Below, piece by piece: positions 3,627-57,420 of a stretch of DNA of 62,256 bases. The position numbers were made by a program, and so were the translations under genes. The stretch's first letter is position 1. Each line of letters begins with the position of its first letter. Below the pieces are notes generated by a model, which was not told the origin of the DNA, made no database searches, and saw only the letters and a list, made by a program, of their open reading frames with translations. Source of the DNA: an uncultured Lentisphaerota bacterium. GTDB lineage: Bacteria; Verrucomicrobiota; Kiritimatiellia; CAIQIC01. Location: the NCBI GenBank assembly GCA_903889245.1, contig CAISWQ010000003.1:1-62256 (forward strand), written 5' to 3'.

Positions 3627-3705
3627 TTTTCCAAGGATTGGAAAGCGCACCGGCCGGTTTTCCAGGCATTGGAAAGTTTCGCGGGATTTTTTCCGGGGCT
3701 TGGAA
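3627..3705. repeat. palindrome array 2, three units
   Basis: Cores are centred at 3636, 3667 and 3698 (pitch 31 and 31). The array begins 10 bases after the PHP gene stop, between convergent genes. The second and third copies are degenerate in one arm. Confidence 0.92.
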
Positions 3706-11600: not shown

Positions 11601-11699
11601 GAACTGACGCAGACGCGGCACGGCGGGGAATGAACAGGCAAACCGGCCCGCCGTCAAGTGCCGTCCGCTGTCTTGCGCCTCCGAAGAAAAAAATCTACC

Positions 11700-12284
11700 A
11701 TGCCGCCGCACGTGAAAATCCACTGGCAAGACTGGTTGTGCCTGCTGCCGCTGCCGCCCGCGTGGCGGCTGGCGGCGTTTACGTTCGGCGGCGCGGCCTG
11801 CGGACTAGCGTTGGTGGTGGCGCACATCTCCAACGCCGCTTCCTATCTCTCTGACAAACCCGAGGCCTGCCTCAACTGCCACGTAATGAACAACGCCTAC
11901 GCGACGTGGCAGCACGGCAGCCACGCGCACGTCGCCGAGTGCAGCGACTGCCATCTGCCGCACCAGAATCCCATCGCCGAGAAGGCCTTCCAGGCCCGCG
12001 ACGGCCTGCGGCATTCCTATGTCTTCACCTTCCGCCTCGAACCGCAGGCGCTGCATTTGTCGGAGGGGGCCAAGCCGGTCGTGCAGGAGAACTGCCTGCG
12101 CTGCCACGCCAACCAATTCATGATGGCGCGGCTGGCCTCGGTCAGTGAGCGCCGCTGCTGGGACTGCCATAGCGGCGTCCACGGCCGCGTGATCAGCCTT
12201 TCCGCCACGCCCCACGCCCAACGGCCGCCGATCCCCGACGCCGGCCTCGAATGGATGAAACCCAAAGCAGGAGCACAGCCATGA
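11700..12284 (+). CDS. nrfH: NrfH-type tetrahaem quinol dehydrogenase
   Basis: Membrane-anchored NapC/NirT-family cytochrome that passes electrons from menaquinol to NrfA. One N-terminal transmembrane helix (LAAFTFGGAACGLALVV) precedes four haem motifs in order: CLNCH, CSDCH, CLRCH and CWDCH. The 194-residue length fits NrfH. The ATG at 11700 was chosen so the hydrophobic anchor starts near residue 24. Its TGA overlaps the nrfA ATG by four bases, giving a fixed nrfHA operon. The promoter region is shared with the divergent resB-ccsA pair. Confidence 0.93.
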   Translation: MPPHVKIHWQDWLCLLPLPPAWRLAAFTFGGAACGLALVVAHISNAASYLSDKPEACLNCHVMNNAYATWQHGSHAHVAECSDCHLPHQNPIAEKAFQARDGLRHSYVFTFRLEPQALHLSEGAKPVVQENCLRCHANQFMMARLASVSERRCWDCHSGVHGRVISLSATPHAQRPPIPDAGLEWMKPKAGAQP

Positions 12285-13687
12285 ACACCAACGAAACGCC
12301 CCCAGCCAGGACGCTGCCCAAGTGGGTCGGCCCGGTGATTTTTCTGCTGACGGCGGGCATCATCGTCGTCCTCGCGTTGCTGGCGGTGAGCATCATGGAA
12401 CGCCGCTGGGAGGCGCAGCGGCCGGCGCTCGCGCTCAAGCCGATCGCCCAGTGGGAGCCGGACAACGCCGTCTGGGGCCAGAACTATCCACGCGAATTCG
12501 AGAGCTACCGCAACACGCGCGAAACCGGCACGCGCACCAAGTTCGGCGGCGGCCCGCCGCGCGACTACCTGGATGAAAATCCGCGGCAGGTGCTGCTCTT
12601 TGCTGGCAACCCGTTCAGCAAGGACTATAAACAGGCGCGCGGCCACTTCCATTCGATCGCCGATGTCACCGGCACCAAGCGCATCAGCGAGAAATCGCCC
12701 GGCACCTGCTGGACCTGCAAGAGCACCGATGTGCCGCGGCTGATGGCGGACATGGGTGTCGAGCAGTTTTCCAAGACACCGTTCGCCCAGCTCAAGGACC
12801 GCGTCACGCACTCCATCGGCTGCCAGGACTGCCATGACCCGGCGACGATGAACCTGCGCATCACGCGGCCCGCGCTCAAGGAGGCCTTCGCCGCGCAGGG
12901 CCGGAACATCAACGAGGCGACGCACCAGGAGATGCGCTCGCTCGTCTGCGCGCAGTGCCATGTCGAATACTACTTCAAGGACAAGGCCCTGCTGACCTTC
13001 CCGTGGGCCAAAGGCCGCGGCGTCGAGGACATGCTCGCCTACTACGACGAGATCAACTTCAGCGACTACACCCACGCCGTTTCCAAGACGCCGATGCTCA
13101 AGGCACAGCATCCCGACTTTGAAGTCTATAGCCACGGCATCCACGCCTACCGTGGCGTCTCCTGCTCCGACTGCCATATGCCCTATCGCACTGAGGGCGG
13201 CGTCAAGTTCACTGACCACCACGTCCAGAGCCCGCTGCTGAACATCGCCAACAGTTGCGCCGTCTGCCACCGCTGGGGCGAAGCCGAGATTCGCCAGCGC
13301 GTCGAGTCCATCCAGACCAAGGTTGCCGCCGTCAAGCAGAACGCCGAAGACGCGCTCGTCGCCGCACACCTCGACCTTGCCGCCGCCATGCAGGCGGGCG
13401 TCGCCGAGGCCGACCTGACTGGCCCGCGCCAGTTGGTCCGCCATGCCCAGTTCCGCTGGGACTACGTCAGCGCCTGCAACGGCATGGGCTTCCACGCGCC
13501 GCAGGAATGCACGCGCATCCTCGCCGACGCGATCAACGGCGCGCAACAGGCGCGGCTCGCCGTCGCGCGGCTGCTCGCCGCCAAGGGCCACAGCGCGCCG
13601 CCGAAACACCCCGATACCAGCACGCGCGAGAAGGCCGCCGCCATCATCAAGGCCTTCGAGGCCGGCGAAAAGGTCAACCTGCTCTAA
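12281..13687 (+). CDS. nrfA: ammonia-forming pentahaem cytochrome c nitrite reductase
   Basis: Periplasmic enzyme reducing nitrite to ammonium with six electrons. The active-site haem uses the lysine motif CWTCK (C143, C146, K147), and four CXXCH motifs follow (CQDCH, CAQCH, CSDCH, CAVCH). The catalytic Arg/Tyr/His region is present, and a Ca-site-like CHVEYYF follows haem 3. The N-terminus keeps an uncleaved hydrophobic helix (residues 17-38). The 468-residue length is normal. Together with nrfH it gives dissimilatory nitrate reduction to ammonium or nitrite detoxification. Confidence 0.96.
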   Translation: MNTNETPPARTLPKWVGPVIFLLTAGIIVVLALLAVSIMERRWEAQRPALALKPIAQWEPDNAVWGQNYPREFESYRNTRETGTRTKFGGGPPRDYLDENPRQVLLFAGNPFSKDYKQARGHFHSIADVTGTKRISEKSPGTCWTCKSTDVPRLMADMGVEQFSKTPFAQLKDRVTHSIGCQDCHDPATMNLRITRPALKEAFAAQGRNINEATHQEMRSLVCAQCHVEYYFKDKALLTFPWAKGRGVEDMLAYYDEINFSDYTHAVSKTPMLKAQHPDFEVYSHGIHAYRGVSCSDCHMPYRTEGGVKFTDHHVQSPLLNIANSCAVCHRWGEAEIRQRVESIQTKVAAVKQNAEDALVAAHLDLAAAMQAGVAEADLTGPRQLVRHAQFRWDYVSACNGMGFHAPQECTRILADAINGAQQARLAVARLLAAKGHSAPPKHPDTSTREKAAAIIKAFEAGEKVNLL

Positions 13688-15032: not shown

Positions 15033-16049
15033 TCAGGTGCGGCCCGGATACTTGATGTCGGCCTTGGTACGCAGTTCCTGGATGTACTTCTGGACCGCCT
15101 GCCCCTTGCCCTGACTCTCCAGATGTTCGCGGATCTTGTCCTTCACCTCGTCGAGCGTCGGGGTTTTGGCTGTATTCTTGGACAGCGCCTGGATGATGTG
15201 ATAGCCGAAGGGCGTCTCGACCAGCGGGCCAATTTCCTTGAGCGGCTGCGTGAAGGCGGCCGTCTCGAAGGCCGGCACCATCTGGCCGCGCGGGAAGGTG
15301 TATTCGCCACCGGTATTTTTGCTGCCGGGATCGTCAGAGTGTTCCTTGGCCAGCTTGGCGAAGTCCGCCCCATTTTGGAGTTGCTTGCGCAGGCCCTCGG
15401 CCTTTTCCTTCGCCTTGGCCTTGGCCTTCTCGTCCGCGCCCTGGTCAAACTTCACCAGGATATGGCGCGCGGTGACCGTCTCCGGCTGCGCCAGCCGGGC
15501 TTGGTTTTCATCGTAAAACTTCTTGACGTCTGCCTCGGTCACCTTGGCCACGGCGCCCGTCTGCTTTTCCAGCAGCTTCTGGATTTTCAGGCCGGTGGTG
15601 ATTTCCTTTTCAAACTCTTCCTTGTTCATCCCCGCCGCGAGGTAGGTCTGTTCAACCGTCTGGCCCGGCGGCACCGGCAGATCTTTCATGGCCTTCTTCA
15701 GATCATCGGCGGTGACTTCGAGCTTGGCCTTCTCGGCGGTGCCAAGCAGCAGAGTCTGCATCACGAGTTCGTCCAGCACGCGGCCGCCCGCCTGTGCACG
15801 GAACATCCCCGCCTGTTCCGCGGGGATCCGCTGGCCGAGCATGGTCATGATCTTGTCCAACCGCTCGTTCACCTCCGCTTGGCGGATTTCGACGCCATTC
15901 ACCACGGCGACGACACTGGTGGGAGCGACAATCTTAAGCGCCGGGAGGACTGGCAAGGCAGGGGTGGCGACGGGCGCGGCGGGTTTTTCATCCGCGGCGT
16001 ATACAGCCACGGCGACGGCGGCCACGATCATTGACAGACGGACGTGCAT
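15033..16049 (-). CDS. SurA/PrsA-like parvulin peptidyl-prolyl isomerase
   Basis: A secreted foldase of 338 residues. A signal peptide covers residues 1-19. A SurA-N-like helical chaperone domain follows (VVAVVNGVEIRQAEVNERL). The parvulin rotamase domain lies near residues 195-295 (TARHILVKF, GADFAKLAKEHSDDPGSKNTGGE split by loops, FGYHIIQ), and then a helical C-terminus. The start at 16049 has AGGAG upstream. It is probably periplasmic and assists folding of exported proteins, of which this window encodes many. Confidence 0.9.
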   Translation of the reverse strand: MHVRLSMIVAAVAVAVYAADEKPAAPVATPALPVLPALKIVAPTSVVAVVNGVEIRQAEVNERLDKIMTMLGQRIPAEQAGMFRAQAGGRVLDELVMQTLLLGTAEKAKLEVTADDLKKAMKDLPVPPGQTVEQTYLAAGMNKEEFEKEITTGLKIQKLLEKQTGAVAKVTEADVKKFYDENQARLAQPETVTARHILVKFDQGADEKAKAKAKEKAEGLRKQLQNGADFAKLAKEHSDDPGSKNTGGEYTFPRGQMVPAFETAAFTQPLKEIGPLVETPFGYHIIQALSKNTAKTPTLDEVKDKIREHLESQGKGQAVQKYIQELRTKADIKYPGRT

Positions 16050-16180
16050 GACGGATCTCCTGGTTCGGTTGGCTCGGCCGCGCGTCAGCGGGCATTGGGC
16101 CCGTCTCCGATCGGCAGAAACGGCGCGCATGATGCCGATGCACCCCCGGCAACGCAAGGCAATTCGCCCCCCGTCCCAGT

Positions 16181-16789
16181 TTAGCTCTGCTTGAGAAACC
16201 GGGTGGCCTTGGCGCGGGTGGCGGGCCGCGGATTATGCAACTGGCGGCGGGCGAAGCGTTGCACGTCAGGGCGCGCCAGCGTGGCCGGGCCGAGCGTCGC
16301 CAGCGCGTTGAGCGCGTGGCCAATCGCGATGTGGCGGCATTCCATCGTCGCGTAACGGGCACGCGTCACGCGCAGCAGCGCGGCGATGATGGCGTCGCGC
16401 CACTCCGGCCGCGCCAGCGCGATGCGCGCCGCGCCCTGGATCGTGTTTGCCGCGGTGATCATCACCGGGCCGGCGATGGGCTGGAGATACGCGGCCAGCA
16501 GGCCATCCAATTTGCTTTGGGTGTCCACGGCGGCGAGGTCGGCGATCAGGCGGATGGCGGTCCACTGGATGATGTTGTTCGGATGCCGGAGCAGCGCGGC
16601 GAGGTCATCGAAGAACGGATAGAGCTTACGCGGCTGCTCTTCGCCAAGCCGCCGCAGCGCCTTGGCGTAGGGAAATTTCTTGCTACCGGGTTCCGTGCGG
16701 ATGATCTCCAGCGCGGCGCGAATCGCCGCCGGCCGGCGCGCGCCTTGCGCGCACAAGCCTGCGACGCTGGGCTGCGCTGGTGTTTTCAT
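16181..16789 (-). CDS. HEAT-repeat-like hypothetical protein
   Basis: About 203 residues, almost wholly helical. Repeating pairs of amphipathic helices (ALLRHPNNIIQWTAIRLIADLA, MITAANTIQGAARIALA and MECRHIAIGHALNALATLG read as separate helices) suggest a HEAT/ARM-type solenoid. No catalytic motif is seen. Its ATG overlaps the stop of the arrestin-like gene by one base (TGATG), so translation is coupled. It is last in the SPFH operon and may be a scaffold or adaptor for the SPFH proteins. That role is inference from context only. Confidence 0.65.
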   Translation of the reverse strand: MKTPAQPSVAGLCAQGARRPAAIRAALEIIRTEPGSKKFPYAKALRRLGEEQPRKLYPFFDDLAALLRHPNNIIQWTAIRLIADLAAVDTQSKLDGLLAAYLQPIAGPVMITAANTIQGAARIALARPEWRDAIIAALLRVTRARYATMECRHIAIGHALNALATLGPATLARPDVQRFARRQLHNPRPATRAKATRFLKQS

Positions 16790-17316
16790 CACTCGCCGTT
16801 GATGCGGATGCGCTGGCTGGTGGCGAGGTCAACCCCCTTGGCGTCGAGGCGGATTTCGACCCGCCACTGCATGCGCCGCCGGTTGCCGCCGAGCATTTCG
16901 AGTCCGATGGCCACCGCGTTGCCGACCGCCGAGTTGGCGAGGAGCGGCGCCGCCACGGCCGGGACCGGCAGCTTGAAGGAGTAGTGCTTCGTCTGCCCGG
17001 CGGGCCAGGTGAGCGCCTGCTCCAGCGTGGTCTCGTGGCGGTGGATTTCGCGCGTGCGCGTCGTTGTTTTTTCACCGCGCTTCACCTCGGTGAACTCGGT
17101 GCCGATGAGTGTCGCATACAGGCGCTTGCCCAGGATTTCCTTGCGCGTGATGACAGCGAAGGAGCCGCTGATGGTCTCGCCGCCTGTAAAGGAGGTTTGC
17201 GGGAGTACCAGCTTGATGCTGCCGCGCAGATGGCGGGCGATATAATAGGCGATGATGCCGCCGATCACCACCACCGCGCCGCCGCCGAAGACGAGTGCCG
17301 CTGTTGATCCAGTCAT
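16789..17316 (-). CDS. membrane-anchored arrestin-like beta-sandwich protein
   Basis: 175 residues. One N-terminal transmembrane helix (AALVFGGGAVVVIGGIIAYY) is followed by a soluble all-beta domain that reads like an arrestin or Spo0M-type fold (SIKLVLPQTSFTGGETISG at the first strand pair, then YSFKLPVPAVAAP and VEIRLDAKGVDL). Arrestin-like bacterial proteins often bind membranes or partner proteins. It lies downstream of two SPFH genes, with a palindrome array in the 119-base gap, and is coupled to the HEAT-like gene. The family call is moderate; the function is unknown. Confidence 0.6.
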   Translation of the reverse strand: MTGSTAALVFGGGAVVVIGGIIAYYIARHLRGSIKLVLPQTSFTGGETISGSFAVITRKEILGKRLYATLIGTEFTEVKRGEKTTTRTREIHRHETTLEQALTWPAGQTKHYSFKLPVPAVAAPLLANSAVGNAVAIGLEMLGGNRRRMQWRVEIRLDAKGVDLATSQRIRINGE

Positions 17317-17353
17317 GATTTTATCTCCAGTTGATTCGTTGCCCTGGATGGCG

Positions 17354-17430
17354 TTCCAAGGGTTGGAAAATTTTTCCCTGGTTTTTCCAAGGCTTGGAAA
17401 AACTCACGTATTTTTTTCCAAGCCCTGGAA
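17354..17430. repeat. palindrome array 5, three units
   Basis: Cores are centred at 17361, 17392 and 17423 (pitch 31 and 31). The array lies inside the SPFH operon, between the second SPFH stop (17436) and the arrestin-like start (17316). Confidence 0.95.
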
Positions 17431-17435
17431 AAAGC

Positions 17436-19244
17436 TCACTTCTTCGCCGGCGGCTTGGCGAGCAGCTTCGCGCCGCCGAGGTCGCCGAGCCGCGCGCCCT
17501 GCAAATCGGTCCAGAGCGTGCCCTCGCCGGTGTGCAGGATATTGATCCGCACCTCCGGGTTCAGGTTCTTGGCGAGCTCGGCCAGCGTGTAGGCCTGCGG
17601 GTCGCCGAGCGCCTTGGCCTTGAGTTGGAAGCCGTTGGCCTTCTCGCCTTCGACCATGGTGACGGTCTGGGCCTTGGCCTCGCCGAGCTTCTTGACCTTG
17701 TCGGCCTTGAGCCCGGCGGTCTGCAGCTCGATCAGCGCGGCCTGCTTGATGGTCGTCGCGTTGATCTCCGCCACCGCCTTCTCCTGGTCGGCCTTGATGG
17801 TGGCCTTGAGCGCGGCGGTCTGCTGCGCGACCTCGGCGCCGCGCTGCTCGATCATGCTGGTCTCGGTGTTGAGCAGCGCGAGTTTCTTGGCGGTGTTCTG
17901 CTTCTCGCGATTGGTCAGGTCCTGCTCCACCGCGACGCTGGCCTGCTGGATCGGCTGCAGGATGGGATCGGGCGCGTTGACGTGCCGGATGAGCGCGTTA
18001 TGGATGGTGATGTTCTTCTCGGCCAGCGCCTTCTTCAGGCTGTCGGTCAGGTCGGTCTGGAACTTCTCGCGGCCTTCGCCGATGATGAAGTCGGTGGCCT
18101 TGTAGGCCGAGCCCTTGAGCCGCGAGATGGAGAGGATCTTCGGCATGATGATCTTATCCACCACCGCGGGCAGGTCGCCGTAGTCGCGGTAGATGGTCGG
18201 AATCTTGGTGGGCAGCAGCTCGAATTCCACGGTCATGTCGAGGCTGATCTCGAAGCCGTCGCGCGAGGGGAAGCCGACGAACTGGTTGAGCACGAACGTC
18301 GGGTTCTGCACGTCGGCGCGCTGTTGGGGCCGCTGGACCTGCGGGGCCGCCGGCTGCGCTGCCACCGGGGCCTGTGACTGGCGCTGCTGCGCCGCGGCGC
18401 GCTGGCTGCGGCTGCGCGAGAGGGTGGAGCTCAACACATCGAAGCCGCTGCGCTCCTGCGGGGCCTCCATCTGCTGCGCCATCTGCATCTGCCCGCCCTG
18501 CTCGGCGATTTCCTTGGCGCGGTTGGAGTACTGGTTCTCCAGCACCTTGAAGTTGAGCGTGTTCACCGCCTCGTTCTGGCTGACGATCGCGGCCTTGGTG
18601 ATGACCGCGCTGCCGGTCCGGCCGAGCATCGAGACCTGGTTCAGGCCCACCTCGAGGATGTCCACCTTGAACTCCTTCGGGTTGACGAAGTAGATGCCCG
18701 GCTGCAGCACGTCGGCGCAGATGCCCTTCTGGTTCGGCCCGGCGAACTGGCCCTCCGGCGCCTTCTCGCCGGCGAGCGAGGTGACCACGCCGATGTAGCC
18801 GATCGGGATCGAGATCGCGTCCACCACGTCCACCTGGTAGCCGTTGGGATTGAGGCGGTACTTGCCCGGTCCGAGCACGCCGCGCCACACGCCCTTCTGG
18901 CCAGGGTTCGCGAGGAACTCGCCCTGTGGCAGATCGCGCCCGACCTTCGAGGTGACGAGGCCGACCCTGCCGAACGGGATGTTCACGACCGGCTCGATCT
19001 TGTGCTCATAGAAGTAGGGATTCAGGAAGTGACGGCCCTCGGCGAGCACGTCTTCCTGCACGCCCTGCTGATCCTTCTTCGCGAGAATCTGGCCCGGCTC
19101 CAGGGGCGCGCCGGACTTGGAGATGATCACGGCCATATGGTCCACCGGGACATAGAAGCGGCAGAAGCCCCACTCCCAGACCAGCCAGAGGCCGATGATC
19201 ACCAGCGCCATCAGCAACACGATTCCGGGGAGTGACTTTTTCAC
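17436..19244 (-). CDS. SPFH/flotillin-like protein with vault-like repeats (second copy)
   Basis: 602 residues. A transmembrane helix (8-26) is followed by three tandem units of about 57 residues (about 50-215). Each unit contains a P-G-Q/E-F/I start, a QKG or QQG turn, a VL-PG step, an NP motif and a closing GVVTS-type strand. A Gln/Ala-rich linker (about 255-325) leads to an SPFH core (about 335-460). A long Ala/Glu/Lys coiled coil follows, and then an ending (PEVRINILHTGEGTLW). The order of repeats, SPFH shoulder and coiled coil recalls major vault protein and flotillins. It overlaps its paralogue by four bases. Confidence 0.8.
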   Translation of the reverse strand: MKKSLPGIVLLMALVIIGLWLVWEWGFCRFYVPVDHMAVIISKSGAPLEPGQILAKKDQQGVQEDVLAEGRHFLNPYFYEHKIEPVVNIPFGRVGLVTSKVGRDLPQGEFLANPGQKGVWRGVLGPGKYRLNPNGYQVDVVDAISIPIGYIGVVTSLAGEKAPEGQFAGPNQKGICADVLQPGIYFVNPKEFKVDILEVGLNQVSMLGRTGSAVITKAAIVSQNEAVNTLNFKVLENQYSNRAKEIAEQGGQMQMAQQMEAPQERSGFDVLSSTLSRSRSQRAAAQQRQSQAPVAAQPAAPQVQRPQQRADVQNPTFVLNQFVGFPSRDGFEISLDMTVEFELLPTKIPTIYRDYGDLPAVVDKIIMPKILSISRLKGSAYKATDFIIGEGREKFQTDLTDSLKKALAEKNITIHNALIRHVNAPDPILQPIQQASVAVEQDLTNREKQNTAKKLALLNTETSMIEQRGAEVAQQTAALKATIKADQEKAVAEINATTIKQAALIELQTAGLKADKVKKLGEAKAQTVTMVEGEKANGFQLKAKALGDPQAYTLAELAKNLNPEVRINILHTGEGTLWTDLQGARLGDLGGAKLLAKPPAKK

Positions 19245-20800
19245 TTGGCCACCTCCTTCTGCTGCGCCGCGCCGGGTAAGAACGGCAGAAACAGCGCGCC
19301 GAGCCCGTCGCCCTTGTCGGAGGTCAGCATCGTTTCGATGCGCGGCCCGACCTTCTGGTAGAAGAGATATTTCGCGTAGTTCAGGCCGCCGCCGAACGCC
19401 GCGGCTTGGCTCTCAAACACCTTGGCCTCGGCGGTATTGTTGAATTTAATCACGGCCTGCTCGCCGCCGGCCTCGGCCACGATGGCCTTGGCCTGCGCAT
19501 CGGCGGCCTCGAGTTCGAGCTTTGCCACCGCGAGGCCCTGGTCGGCCGCGGTCAACTGCACCTGCTGGTCCTGCTTCGCCAGGATCGTCGCCTGCAGTTT
19601 GAGCGTCTCGGCCTTGACCTTCTCCTCGTTCTGCTTCGCGAGCATTTCCTGCGCGGTCAGCTCCGCCTTCGACCGTGCCTGCTCGATTTGCTGGTCGTAC
19701 ATCTTCGCCGTCTGCTTGGCTACCTCGCGCTCGCGGATGACCTTGGCGATGTCCTCCGGCGCGGTGATGTTGCGCACCAGCACCGATTTGATCGCCACGC
19801 CCGCCGCCAGGCACGTCTCGCGCAGATGCTTCTCCAGGTTATCCTGGAACTGCTGGCGCATCTCGCCGACGATGTAGTTCAGCGCCGGGTTCTTGCTGCC
19901 CTCGATGCGGCTGAACCCGCGCGCGCGCGGCAGGATGATCTTCTTGATGATGTCATCCATGACGCCGACCTGGTGCAACAACAGCGCCGCCTGCTCGCGT
20001 ATCAGCGCGAACTCCAGCGTACCCTCGACGTGGACCGTGAAGCCATCCATCGTCAGAAAGTTGATCGCATCCTCGCCGCTCAACTCGAAGCGCTGGCTTT
20101 GCAGGTTCACCTCGTTCACGTTCATCAGGTAGGGGTTGAGGTAATGCGTGCCCGGATCGAGTACCTCGGCCTGCACCCCCTTGAGTCCCGCGGCCGCGAT
20201 GTAGGAGTTGCGCGCCTCCGCCGGCAGCCCATCGGTCAACGGATCCTTGCCGGTCAGCCGCGTCACCACGCCCACGCAGCCGGGCTTGATGTTGATCGCC
20301 TCCTGGATCTTCACGTCGTAGGCGAACGGGTTGATGAAATGCTTACCCGGACCGAGCACCTCCGGCACGATGCCCTTGGTGTCCTTCTGCGCGATGATCT
20401 GGCCCGGCGGCAGGTTCTTGCCAAACAGCCGCGTCTGCACGCCCAGCTTGCCGGCAGGGATGTCCGTCACCGGGACCAGCGCCCAGTCCCACGAATAGGG
20501 ATTCTTGAAATAGCGCGCGCCCGGCGTCAGCACTTCGAGCTGGACGCCCTTCTGCTGCGGTTGCACCGCGAGGATTTCGCCCGACGGCAGATCCTCGCCC
20601 GTCTTGCGGATCAGCACGGCGACCTCGTCCGCGTCCGGCTCGATACGCCACCAGAACCAGACCCAGACCGGCAACCCGAGCACGACCACCGCGGCGGCGA
20701 TGGCGATACCCGCGGCGCATCCCAGCCCGCTCATCCGCTGCGGCGTTGTGCCCCCGCCCGGTACCGGCGGCGGCCCGCTCCAACCATGTCCTTTTTCCAT
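19241..20800 (-). CDS. SPFH/flotillin-like protein with vault-like repeats (first copy)
   Basis: 519 residues, first gene of the operon, with GGAGG before the ATG at 20800. A Pro/Gly-rich N-terminus precedes a transmembrane helix (about 27-50). Three repeat units like those of the downstream paralogue follow (about 68-240; the third carries an insertion). An SPFH domain lies around 245-370 and a coiled coil after 375 is rich in Ala, Glu and Gln. Stomatin/prohibitin relatives form membrane cages and scaffold proteases or lipids. Two paralogues translated in tandem suggest a heteromeric assembly. Confidence 0.8.
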   Translation of the reverse strand: MEKGHGWSGPPPVPGGGTTPQRMSGLGCAAGIAIAAAVVVLGLPVWVWFWWRIEPDADEVAVLIRKTGEDLPSGEILAVQPQQKGVQLEVLTPGARYFKNPYSWDWALVPVTDIPAGKLGVQTRLFGKNLPPGQIIAQKDTKGIVPEVLGPGKHFINPFAYDVKIQEAINIKPGCVGVVTRLTGKDPLTDGLPAEARNSYIAAAGLKGVQAEVLDPGTHYLNPYLMNVNEVNLQSQRFELSGEDAINFLTMDGFTVHVEGTLEFALIREQAALLLHQVGVMDDIIKKIILPRARGFSRIEGSKNPALNYIVGEMRQQFQDNLEKHLRETCLAAGVAIKSVLVRNITAPEDIAKVIREREVAKQTAKMYDQQIEQARSKAELTAQEMLAKQNEEKVKAETLKLQATILAKQDQQVQLTAADQGLAVAKLELEAADAQAKAIVAEAGGEQAVIKFNNTAEAKVFESQAAAFGGGLNYAKYLFYQKVGPRIETMLTSDKGDGLGALFLPFLPGAAQQKEVAK

Positions 20801-22514: not shown

Positions 22515-22592
22515 TTCCAGGGCTTGGAAATCAAGCCGGTGATTTTTTCCAAGGCTTGGAACATGACTGACCCAAATTTCCAAGCCTTGGAA
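22515..22592. repeat. palindrome array 6, three units
   Basis: Cores are centred at 22522, 22554 and 22585 (pitch 32 and 31). The third unit lies inside the first codons of the PGPGW gene (residues about 6-10), and the second lies just before its ATG. The array therefore spans the leader and start of a coding region. Confidence 0.93.
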
Positions 22593-38081: not shown

Positions 38082-38191
38082 TTCCAAGGCTTGGAAATTT
38101 CCGCGTGGTTTTTTCCAAGGCTTGGAAAACTTGACCGCGAAACTGTCCAAGGCTTGGAAAAACCGACGATGTAGGTTTCCAATCCTTGGAA
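38082..38191. repeat. palindrome array 8, four units
   Basis: Cores are centred at 38089, 38120, 38152 and 38184 (pitch 31, 32 and 32). The array fills the 141-base gap between fucP and the epimerase-like gene and is the longest after array 1. Confidence 0.95.
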
Positions 38192-57342: not shown

Positions 57343-57420
57343 TTCCAAGGCTTGGAAAAAAGAGCCGTGACATGTTCCCATCCTTGGAAAATCCGGGCGG
57401 TCGTTTTCCCATCCTTGGAA
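57343..57420. repeat. palindrome array 10, three units
   Basis: Cores are centred at 57350, 57382 and 57413 (pitch 32 and 31). It lies between the PFK stop and the next gene. The second and third units share a TTCCCATCCTTGGAA variant, which suggests local duplication or gene conversion. Confidence 0.94.

What the first reader, a model, noticed from the sequence alone, without database searches (positions are those of the whole stretch)
16181..20800. Paired SPFH proteins with three vault-like repeats each, in an operon with arrestin-like and HEAT-like genes
Both SPFH proteins begin with a membrane helix, then three ~57-residue repeats (G-turn, VL-PG, NP, closing strand), then SPFH and coiled coil. 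Repeat-shoulder-coil is the order in eukaryotic major vault protein; here it is anchored to the membrane. The paralogues are translationally coupled, which suggests a two-subunit cage. The arrestin-like and HEAT-like partners, coupled by TGATG, look like adaptor and scaffold. I know of no described system with this composition.
Basis: partly seen in the sequence, partly recalled or inferred. Interest (0 to 1): 0.68.

Follow-up and report, generated by a model that had tools for sequence, protein, structure and literature searches.

The report
Bacterial membrane-anchored half-vault-like protein pair
Two overlapping bacterial genes, kept side by side in several phyla, encode membrane-anchored cage-type (SPFH) proteins whose wall is lengthened by extra copies of their own first domain, and the predicted fold matches the eukaryotic vault protein in the same order, which gives a testable lead on how vaults arose.

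Summary
The core observation is real. Genes A (19241-20800, minus) and B (17436-19244, minus) each encode a membrane helix, three ~57-residue repeats, an SPFH2 domain and a coiled coil. The third "repeat" is the SPFH1 half of the SPFH domain, so A and B are SPFH proteins with two extra tandem SPFH1 units.

A and B lie next to each other in 76 of 80 named genomic loci from several phyla; 68 of the 76 keep a 4-nt overlap. All A's and all B's separate at one fully supported branch, and repeats cluster by position, so triplication preceded the A/B gene duplication.

No-template AlphaFold2 models of both proteins have human Major Vault Protein as top PDB match. B's repeats plus SPFH2 superpose on MVP repeats 7-9 plus shoulder (276 residues, 3.7 Å). 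Sequence shows no MVP similarity and Vault models do not match, so these are vault-like in fold, not members of the MVP family.

The four-gene "operon" is not supported. The arrestin-like gene is confined to the genus, the HEAT-like gene to this genome, both labels are below Pfam cut-offs, and a dispersed palindrome array separates them from B.

Best reading: an alternating A/B periplasmic dome, a tall "half-vault", enclosing membrane patches. Its function is inferred.

The parts
19241..20800 (-). Gene A: SPFH subunit A, 519 aa
   Evidence: ORF; Band_7 E 1e-21; orthologues 53-88% identical in the loci used
20651..20725 (-). A: membrane helix, residues 26-50
   Evidence: model helix 26-50; one hydrophobic segment, N side more positive in 90% of orthologues
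20462..20644 (-). A: repeat 1 (extra SPFH1-type unit), residues 53-113
20291..20461 (-). A: repeat 2 (extra SPFH1-type unit), residues 114-170
20114..20290 (-). A: repeat 3 = SPFH1 half of the SPFH domain, residues 171-229
   Evidence: Band_7 begins at 171; aligns with prohibitin and, in the in-order superposition, with MVP repeat 9
19757..20113 (-). A: SPFH2 half, residues 230-348
   Evidence: stomatin, prohibitin and MVP shoulder matches
19397..19756 (-). A: coiled-coil helices, residues 349-468
   Evidence: model helices 349-383 and 392-468
17436..19244 (-). Gene B: SPFH subunit B, 602 aa, overlaps A by 4 nt (GTGA)
   Evidence: ORF; Band_7 E 6.3e-17; overlap
19167..19232 (-). B: membrane helix, residues 5-26
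18981..19151 (-). B: repeat 1 (extra SPFH1-type unit), residues 32-88
   Evidence: sequence match to prohibitin SPFH1
18810..18980 (-). B: repeat 2 (extra SPFH1-type unit), residues 89-145
18648..18809 (-). B: repeat 3 = SPFH1 half, residues 146-199
17970..18647 (-). B: SPFH2 half, residues 200-425, interrupted by a variable low-confidence insert (about residues 216-322, 18279-18599)
17607..17969 (-). B: long coiled-coil helix, residues 426-546
   Evidence: model helix 426-546
17354..17430 (.). Array of three palindromes (TTCCAAG...TTGGAA type, 31 nt apart) between B and C; argues against one uninterrupted four-gene unit
16789..17316 (-). Gene C: TM plus weakly arrestin-like domain, 175 aa; accessory at most, genus-restricted
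16181..16792 (-). Gene D: weakly HEAT-like protein, 203 aa; only in this genome among those searched

Best explanation
A and B are the two subunits of a membrane-anchored SPFH cage whose wall has been lengthened by tandem duplication of the SPFH1 domain: membrane helix, SPFH1, SPFH1, SPFH1-SPFH2, coiled coil. Shown by computation: the repeats, their identity as SPFH1-type units, the ancient A/B pairing and coupling, and the fold-level match in order to MVP repeats 7-9, shoulder and start of the cap helix. Inferred: A and B alternate round a ring, as HflK/HflC and FLOT1/FLOT2 do; the ring stands on the inner membrane with its body in the periplasm; the stacked SPFH1 units form a vertical beta wall like the vault body; and the coiled coils close the top, giving a tall half-vault. 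Its likely job is that of other SPFH domes: to fence off a patch of membrane and the proteins in it, for quality control or lipid organisation, with more headroom for tall cargo. The arrestin-like and HEAT-like genes are not part of the conserved machine.
For: Repeats significant and fixed at three per protein: six matches per genome in nearly every genome that has the pair. Repeat 3 is inside the SPFH domain; isolated repeats match only the start of Band_7; B repeat 1 matches prohibitin SPFH1 by profile (E 1.3e-5, reversed control 0.24). A/B adjacent in 76 of 80 loci with a 4-nt overlap in 68. A's and B's separate at one branch with 100% support, and repeats cluster by position across A and B. 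MVP is the top PDB match for both models with in-order superposition (A 269 residues, 6.0 Å, Z 11.2; B 276 residues, 3.7 Å, Z 10.5). Prohibitin gives the best Z over SPFH1-SPFH2 (15.7 and 17.0). Alternation in paired SPFH cages: PMC12624060. N-in/C-out charge pattern. No conserved third gene.
Against: No assembly was modelled or observed; alternation, ring size and height are inferred. Models are monomers from fairly shallow alignments (72 and 63 rows, pTM 0.58 and 0.54), and AlphaFold2 was trained on SPFH and MVP structures. The charge bias for B is modest (71% of rows). Two Planctomycetota loci have A without B (L122, L150), so A may work alone there. No direct evidence for any function.
Confidence: 0.62

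Rival explanations
1. An ordinary HflK/HflC-type pair with an incidental N-terminal duplication: the extra units are flexible spacers, and the likeness to vaults only reflects that SPFH1 and MVP repeats share a simple three-stranded fold, stacked in tandem by convergence.
For: No sequence similarity to MVP: no Vault hit in the genome at E up to 10, and profile comparison with human MVP no better than with its reversed sequence. The highest structural Z is to prohibitin, not MVP. Each repeat looks like SPFH1 by sequence.
Against: Repeats are predicted with high confidence (mostly above 90) and their stacking matches MVP over three consecutive units at 3.7 Å in B. The repeat number is held at three in both subunits wherever the pair was counted in the phylum, which a spacer would not need. 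The genome has other SPFH genes resembling HflC and HflK.
Confidence: 0.25
2. A true bacterial homologue of the vault: A/B, the four-repeat solo SPFH proteins and MVP descend from one repeat-bearing SPFH ancestor, and MVP later gained repeats and lost the membrane anchor. (Compatible with the best explanation; it adds a claim of descent.)
For: Top PDB match is MVP for both models with the same domain order. Repeat number varies among bacterial relatives: three in A/B, about four in a second solo family.
Against: No detectable sequence similarity to MVP repeats; repeat expansion could have happened twice; no tree links them.
Confidence: 0.3
3. One reading: an A/B cage with an arrestin-like adaptor and a HEAT scaffold encoded in one operon.
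For: The four genes lie on one strand, and C and D overlap.
Against: C is confined to the genus, D to this genome; neither family label reaches its cut-off; no shared third gene in 80 loci; a dispersed palindrome array lies between B and C.
Confidence: 0.04

Closest known systems
Eukaryotic Major Vault Protein (MVP)
   Same: Tandem three-stranded beta repeats, then SPFH-type shoulder, then long helix; A 52-386 and B 29-466 superpose on MVP 323-688
   Different: Three units instead of nine, an N-terminal membrane helix that MVP lacks, two subunits instead of one, no detectable sequence similarity; expected to form a half cage on a membrane rather than a closed particle
Prohibitin PHB1/PHB2 and Erlin1/2 complexes
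   Same: Paired subunits, membrane helix, SPFH1-SPFH2, coiled coils; highest Z over SPFH1-SPFH2
   Different: One SPFH1 instead of three; eukaryotic organelles
HflK/HflC (with FtsH)
   Same: Adjacent coupled bacterial SPFH gene pair, membrane-anchored, N-in/C-out expected
   Different: One SPFH1 each; this genome has separate HflK/HflC-like genes (by eye); no neighbour family recurs beside A/B
Flotillin FLOT1/FLOT2
   Same: Heteromeric SPFH cage with long coiled coil
   Different: No membrane helix, one SPFH1, cytosolic side
Four-repeat solo SPFH proteins found here (L153, L154, L155)
   Same: Membrane helix, several SPFH1-type repeats, SPFH2, coil
   Different: Single gene, about four rather than three units, about 27-31% identical to A-type proteins over the shared part

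Membership tests
SPFH / Band 7 superfamily | Band_7 (PF01145) match above curated cut-off | tested here: met
   A 78.3 and B 62.6 bits, cut-off 23.6
SPFH / Band 7 superfamily | SPFH1-SPFH2 fold followed by coiled coil, membrane segment upstream | tested here: met
SPFH / Band 7 superfamily | Large ring or dome assembly | not testable with these tools
   monomer predictions only
Major Vault Protein | Vault repeat sequence family (PF01505) | tested here: not met
   no match in the whole genome at E up to 10; none for isolated repeats
Major Vault Protein | Sequence similarity to MVP | tested here: not met
   profile comparison with human MVP no better than with reversed MVP; MVP absent from PDB sequence hits at E up to 10
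Major Vault Protein | Repeat - SPFH shoulder - helix order and fold | tested here: met
Major Vault Protein | Nine repeats | tested here: not met
   three repeats per protein
Major Vault Protein | Closed 78-mer particle | not testable with these tools
   no assembly modelling available
HflK/HflC | Adjacent, coupled pair of SPFH genes | tested here: met
   76 of 80 loci adjacent, 68 with 4-nt overlap
HflK/HflC | Single SPFH1 unit after the membrane helix | tested here: not met
   three units in each subunit
HflK/HflC | Binds FtsH | not tested
   needs experiment
Arrestin (gene C) | Arrestin_N or Arrestin_C above curated cut-off | tested here: not met
   14.4 and 16.9 bits against 24.9 and 27.7; orthologues alike
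HEAT repeats (gene D) | HEAT_2 above curated cut-off | tested here: not met
   18 bits against 27.7

The most novel reading that the evidence does not exclude
A and B form a two-subunit, membrane-anchored half-vault in bacteria that is homologous to the eukaryotic vault: MVP repeats are tandemly duplicated SPFH1 domains (MVP repeat 9 being the SPFH1 of its shoulder), and these bacterial proteins, with three or four units, preserve intermediate stages between ordinary SPFH domes and the nine-repeat vault.
Probability: 0.3. Interest if true: 0.85.

Novelty: new variant of a known kind. Interest (0 to 1): 0.62.

Why it matters
The origin and function of the vault are open. [quoted passage not shown] A widespread bacterial SPFH pair with a vault-like repeat wall and a membrane anchor would contradict that uniqueness at fold level, suggest that vault repeats are SPFH1 duplications, and offer simple systems in which wall height can be changed by repeat number. 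It would also add an undescribed two-subunit membrane cage to bacterial cell biology, present in about a fifth of the genomes sampled in this phylum (61 of 289) and recorded in at least three further phyla.

Tried and rejected
1) Sequence homology to MVP: Pfam Vault on isolated repeats and on the whole genome, PDB sequence search with A and B profiles and profile comparison with human MVP plus a reversed control were all negative. 2) Four-gene module: searches with C and D and neighbour clustering in 80 loci found no conserved partner; a methyltransferase-type gene (by eye) follows B in five loci, too few to matter. 3) Very long B frames (over 1000 aa) in some genomes, which looked like A-B fusions, are taken as open frames running through A in another frame of GC-rich DNA, because A's own open frame is shorter there. 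4) Anti-phage defence: PADLOC gave only E 0.06 and 0.025 matches, taken as chance. 5) Repeat profile A5 alone against PDB sequences gave mainly chance hits plus prohibitin. 6) Literature: no paper in the held library was found that describes bacterial SPFH proteins with tandem SPFH1 repeats; a search of the P. aeruginosa SPFH survey for tandem, duplicated or repeated architecture found none. Most subscription journals and bioRxiv are not held, so this is weak evidence of novelty. 7) A tally of the pair across a second phylum failed, as did laying the whole genome in the script box.

Full report
What is there. Genes A (19241-20800, minus strand, 519 aa) and B (17436-19244, minus strand, 602 aa) are adjacent and overlap by four bases, GTGA. 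Both belong to the SPFH/Band 7 superfamily by Pfam. Downstream on the same strand, after a gap of 119 bases, come C (16789-17316) and D (16181-16792), which overlap each other as GTGATG, and then a peptidyl-prolyl isomerase gene (15033-16157).

The repeats. A has three repeats at residues 53-113, 114-170 and 171-229; B at 32-88, 89-145 and 146-199. All fifteen pairwise comparisons lie 10 to 25 standard deviations above shuffled sequence. A profile built only from repeats 1 and 2 of many orthologues finds repeat 3 at E = 1.3e-14 in A and 1.1e-17 in B, and repeat-1/2 and repeat-3 profiles align with 99% probability. Within the phylum, genomes that carry the pair show six repeat matches almost without exception, three per protein. 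The third repeat is not upstream of the SPFH domain but is its first half: Band_7 begins at residue 171 in A and 145 in B, and the solved prohibitin structure aligns from residue 168 of A and 142 of B through SPFH2. Isolated repeats match only the first 30 to 45 positions of Band_7, and repeat 1 of B matches the prohibitin SPFH1 strand pair by profile (E 1.3e-5 against 0.24 for the reversed control). The repeats are therefore tandem copies of SPFH1.

History of the pair. Orthologues of A are 53-88% identical to it across the loci used. Record titles and taxonomy place the 80 named loci in Verrucomicrobiota, Kiritimatiellota, Lentisphaerota, Planctomycetota, Thermodesulfobacteriota and Gammaproteobacteria (Competibacter relatives), plus one Fidelibacterota record; many are metagenome bins, so single labels may be wrong. 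B follows A in 76 of 80 loci, with a start codon giving a four-base overlap in 68 of those 76. Two of the four exceptions are cut by contig ends (L075, L116); the other two, both Planctomycetota, have A alone (L122, L150). In a tree of 135 sequences the A's and the B's lie on opposite sides of one branch with full support. Repeats group by position rather than by protein in mean identity: A1 with B1 (46%), A2 with B2 (47%), A3 with B3 (41%); the repeat tree agrees for units 1 and 3 and is unresolved for unit 2. So the SPFH1 triplication most likely came first, then the gene duplication, and the pair then travelled together. About a fifth of 289 genomes sampled from the phylum carry it, patchily.

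Structure. AlphaFold2 without templates gave good monomer models (mean pLDDT 82 for A, 76 for B, repeats mostly above 90). Each repeat has three main strands, as MVP repeats do (PMC13347060). For both models the best match in the whole PDB is Major Vault Protein over nearly the full length (A E = 4.3e-12; B E = 4.1e-10), just ahead of prohibitin, Erlin, HflK/C, stomatin and flotillin. In the second alignment A 52-386 lies on MVP 323-685 (269 residues, 6.0 Å, Z 11.2) and B 29-466 on MVP 323-688 (276 residues, 3.7 Å, Z 10.5). With the published boundaries (repeats and shoulder to residue 646, cap helix after that, contacts at 383 and 474 assigned to R8-R9; PMC13347060), this pairs repeats 1, 2, 3 with MVP repeats 7, 8, 9, and SPFH2 with the MVP shoulder; the start of R7 at about 323 is from my own knowledge of the vault structure. 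Prohibitin gives higher Z over SPFH1-SPFH2 alone (15.7 and 17.0) but has nothing to pair with repeats 1 and 2. Caveats: the program was trained on these structures, a shared simple fold is not descent, and the whole-chain rmsd is large where the coil bends.

Sequence does not show an MVP link. Vault PF01505 has no match in the genome at E up to 10. Neither profile finds MVP among PDB sequences at E up to 10. Profile comparison with human MVP is no better than with its reverse. The proteins resemble vault protein in architecture, but the sequence tests for MVP membership are not met.

A second family. The repeat profile also found single-gene SPFH proteins of 612-719 aa in other genomes of the phylum with about four SPFH1-type units, the last one leading into SPFH2 (L153, L154, L155); L152 is shorter. 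SPFH proteins with several SPFH1 units are thus a broader bacterial class with variable repeat number.

The neighbours. C was found in three of four genomes of the genus and nowhere else among 56 genomes searched; D only in this genome. Their family labels are below cut-off. The gap between B and C contains three palindromes of a type found 61 times in the window against 0.1 expected. No third gene accompanies the pair in 80 loci. The four-gene operon is not a conserved system.

Mechanism. In solved paired SPFH complexes the two subunits alternate round a ring that stands on a membrane (PMC12624060). Here both subunits have one N-terminal membrane helix with positive charge on its N-terminal side (90% of A's and 71% of B's), which by the positive-inside rule suggests a periplasmic body. 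The likeliest machine is an alternating A/B dome in which two extra SPFH1 layers raise SPFH2 and the coiled-coil roof off the membrane: a tall half-vault. What it encloses is unknown; by analogy with HflKC, prohibitin and Erlin, membrane-protein quality control or lipid organisation is most likely. The genome has other SPFH genes that look like HflC and HflK by eye, so this is an additional cage rather than the genome's HflKC.

Verdict. The finding is real and more interesting than an ordinary SPFH pair, with the MVP comparison upheld at fold level and the operon claim dropped.

Noticed in passing
window, many sites, e.g. 172-314, 3629-3705, 17354-17430, 22515-22592, 38082-38191, 57343-57420: Dispersed arrays of palindromes (TTCCAAG...TTGGAA type) with units about 31-32 nt apart: 61 matches against 0.1 expected by chance. 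Also present in loci of other contigs of this genome and near relatives.
   Followed up: partly
L153 871-2709, L154 1252-3132, L155 421-2580 (L152 1165-3012 shorter): A second, single-gene SPFH family with about four SPFH1-type repeats, the last leading into SPFH2.
   Followed up: partly
L122 3079-4668 and L150 5869-7452: Two Planctomycetota records have A without any B next to it although the contig continues.
   Followed up: partly
L066 6658-11368 (own genome, contig 91): Three further SPFH genes in a row: a 632-aa membrane protein with an SPFH domain, then HflC-like and HflK-like genes, followed by a P-type ATPase-like gene (labels by eye apart from the Band_7 matches).
   Followed up: no
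L067 6880-10134 (own genome, contig 28): SPFH protein with what looks like an N-terminal zinc-ribbon and no obvious membrane helix, followed by a zinc-ribbon/FHA-like protein; resembles a separate SPFH module (by eye).
   Followed up: no
window 11658-13687, plus strand: Two multihaem cytochrome genes that look like the nrfH/nrfA nitrite reductase pair (by eye).
   Followed up: no
window 18279-18599 (B residues about 216-322): Variable, mostly low-confidence insert between SPFH1 and SPFH2 of B, absent in A; length varies among orthologues.
   Followed up: no
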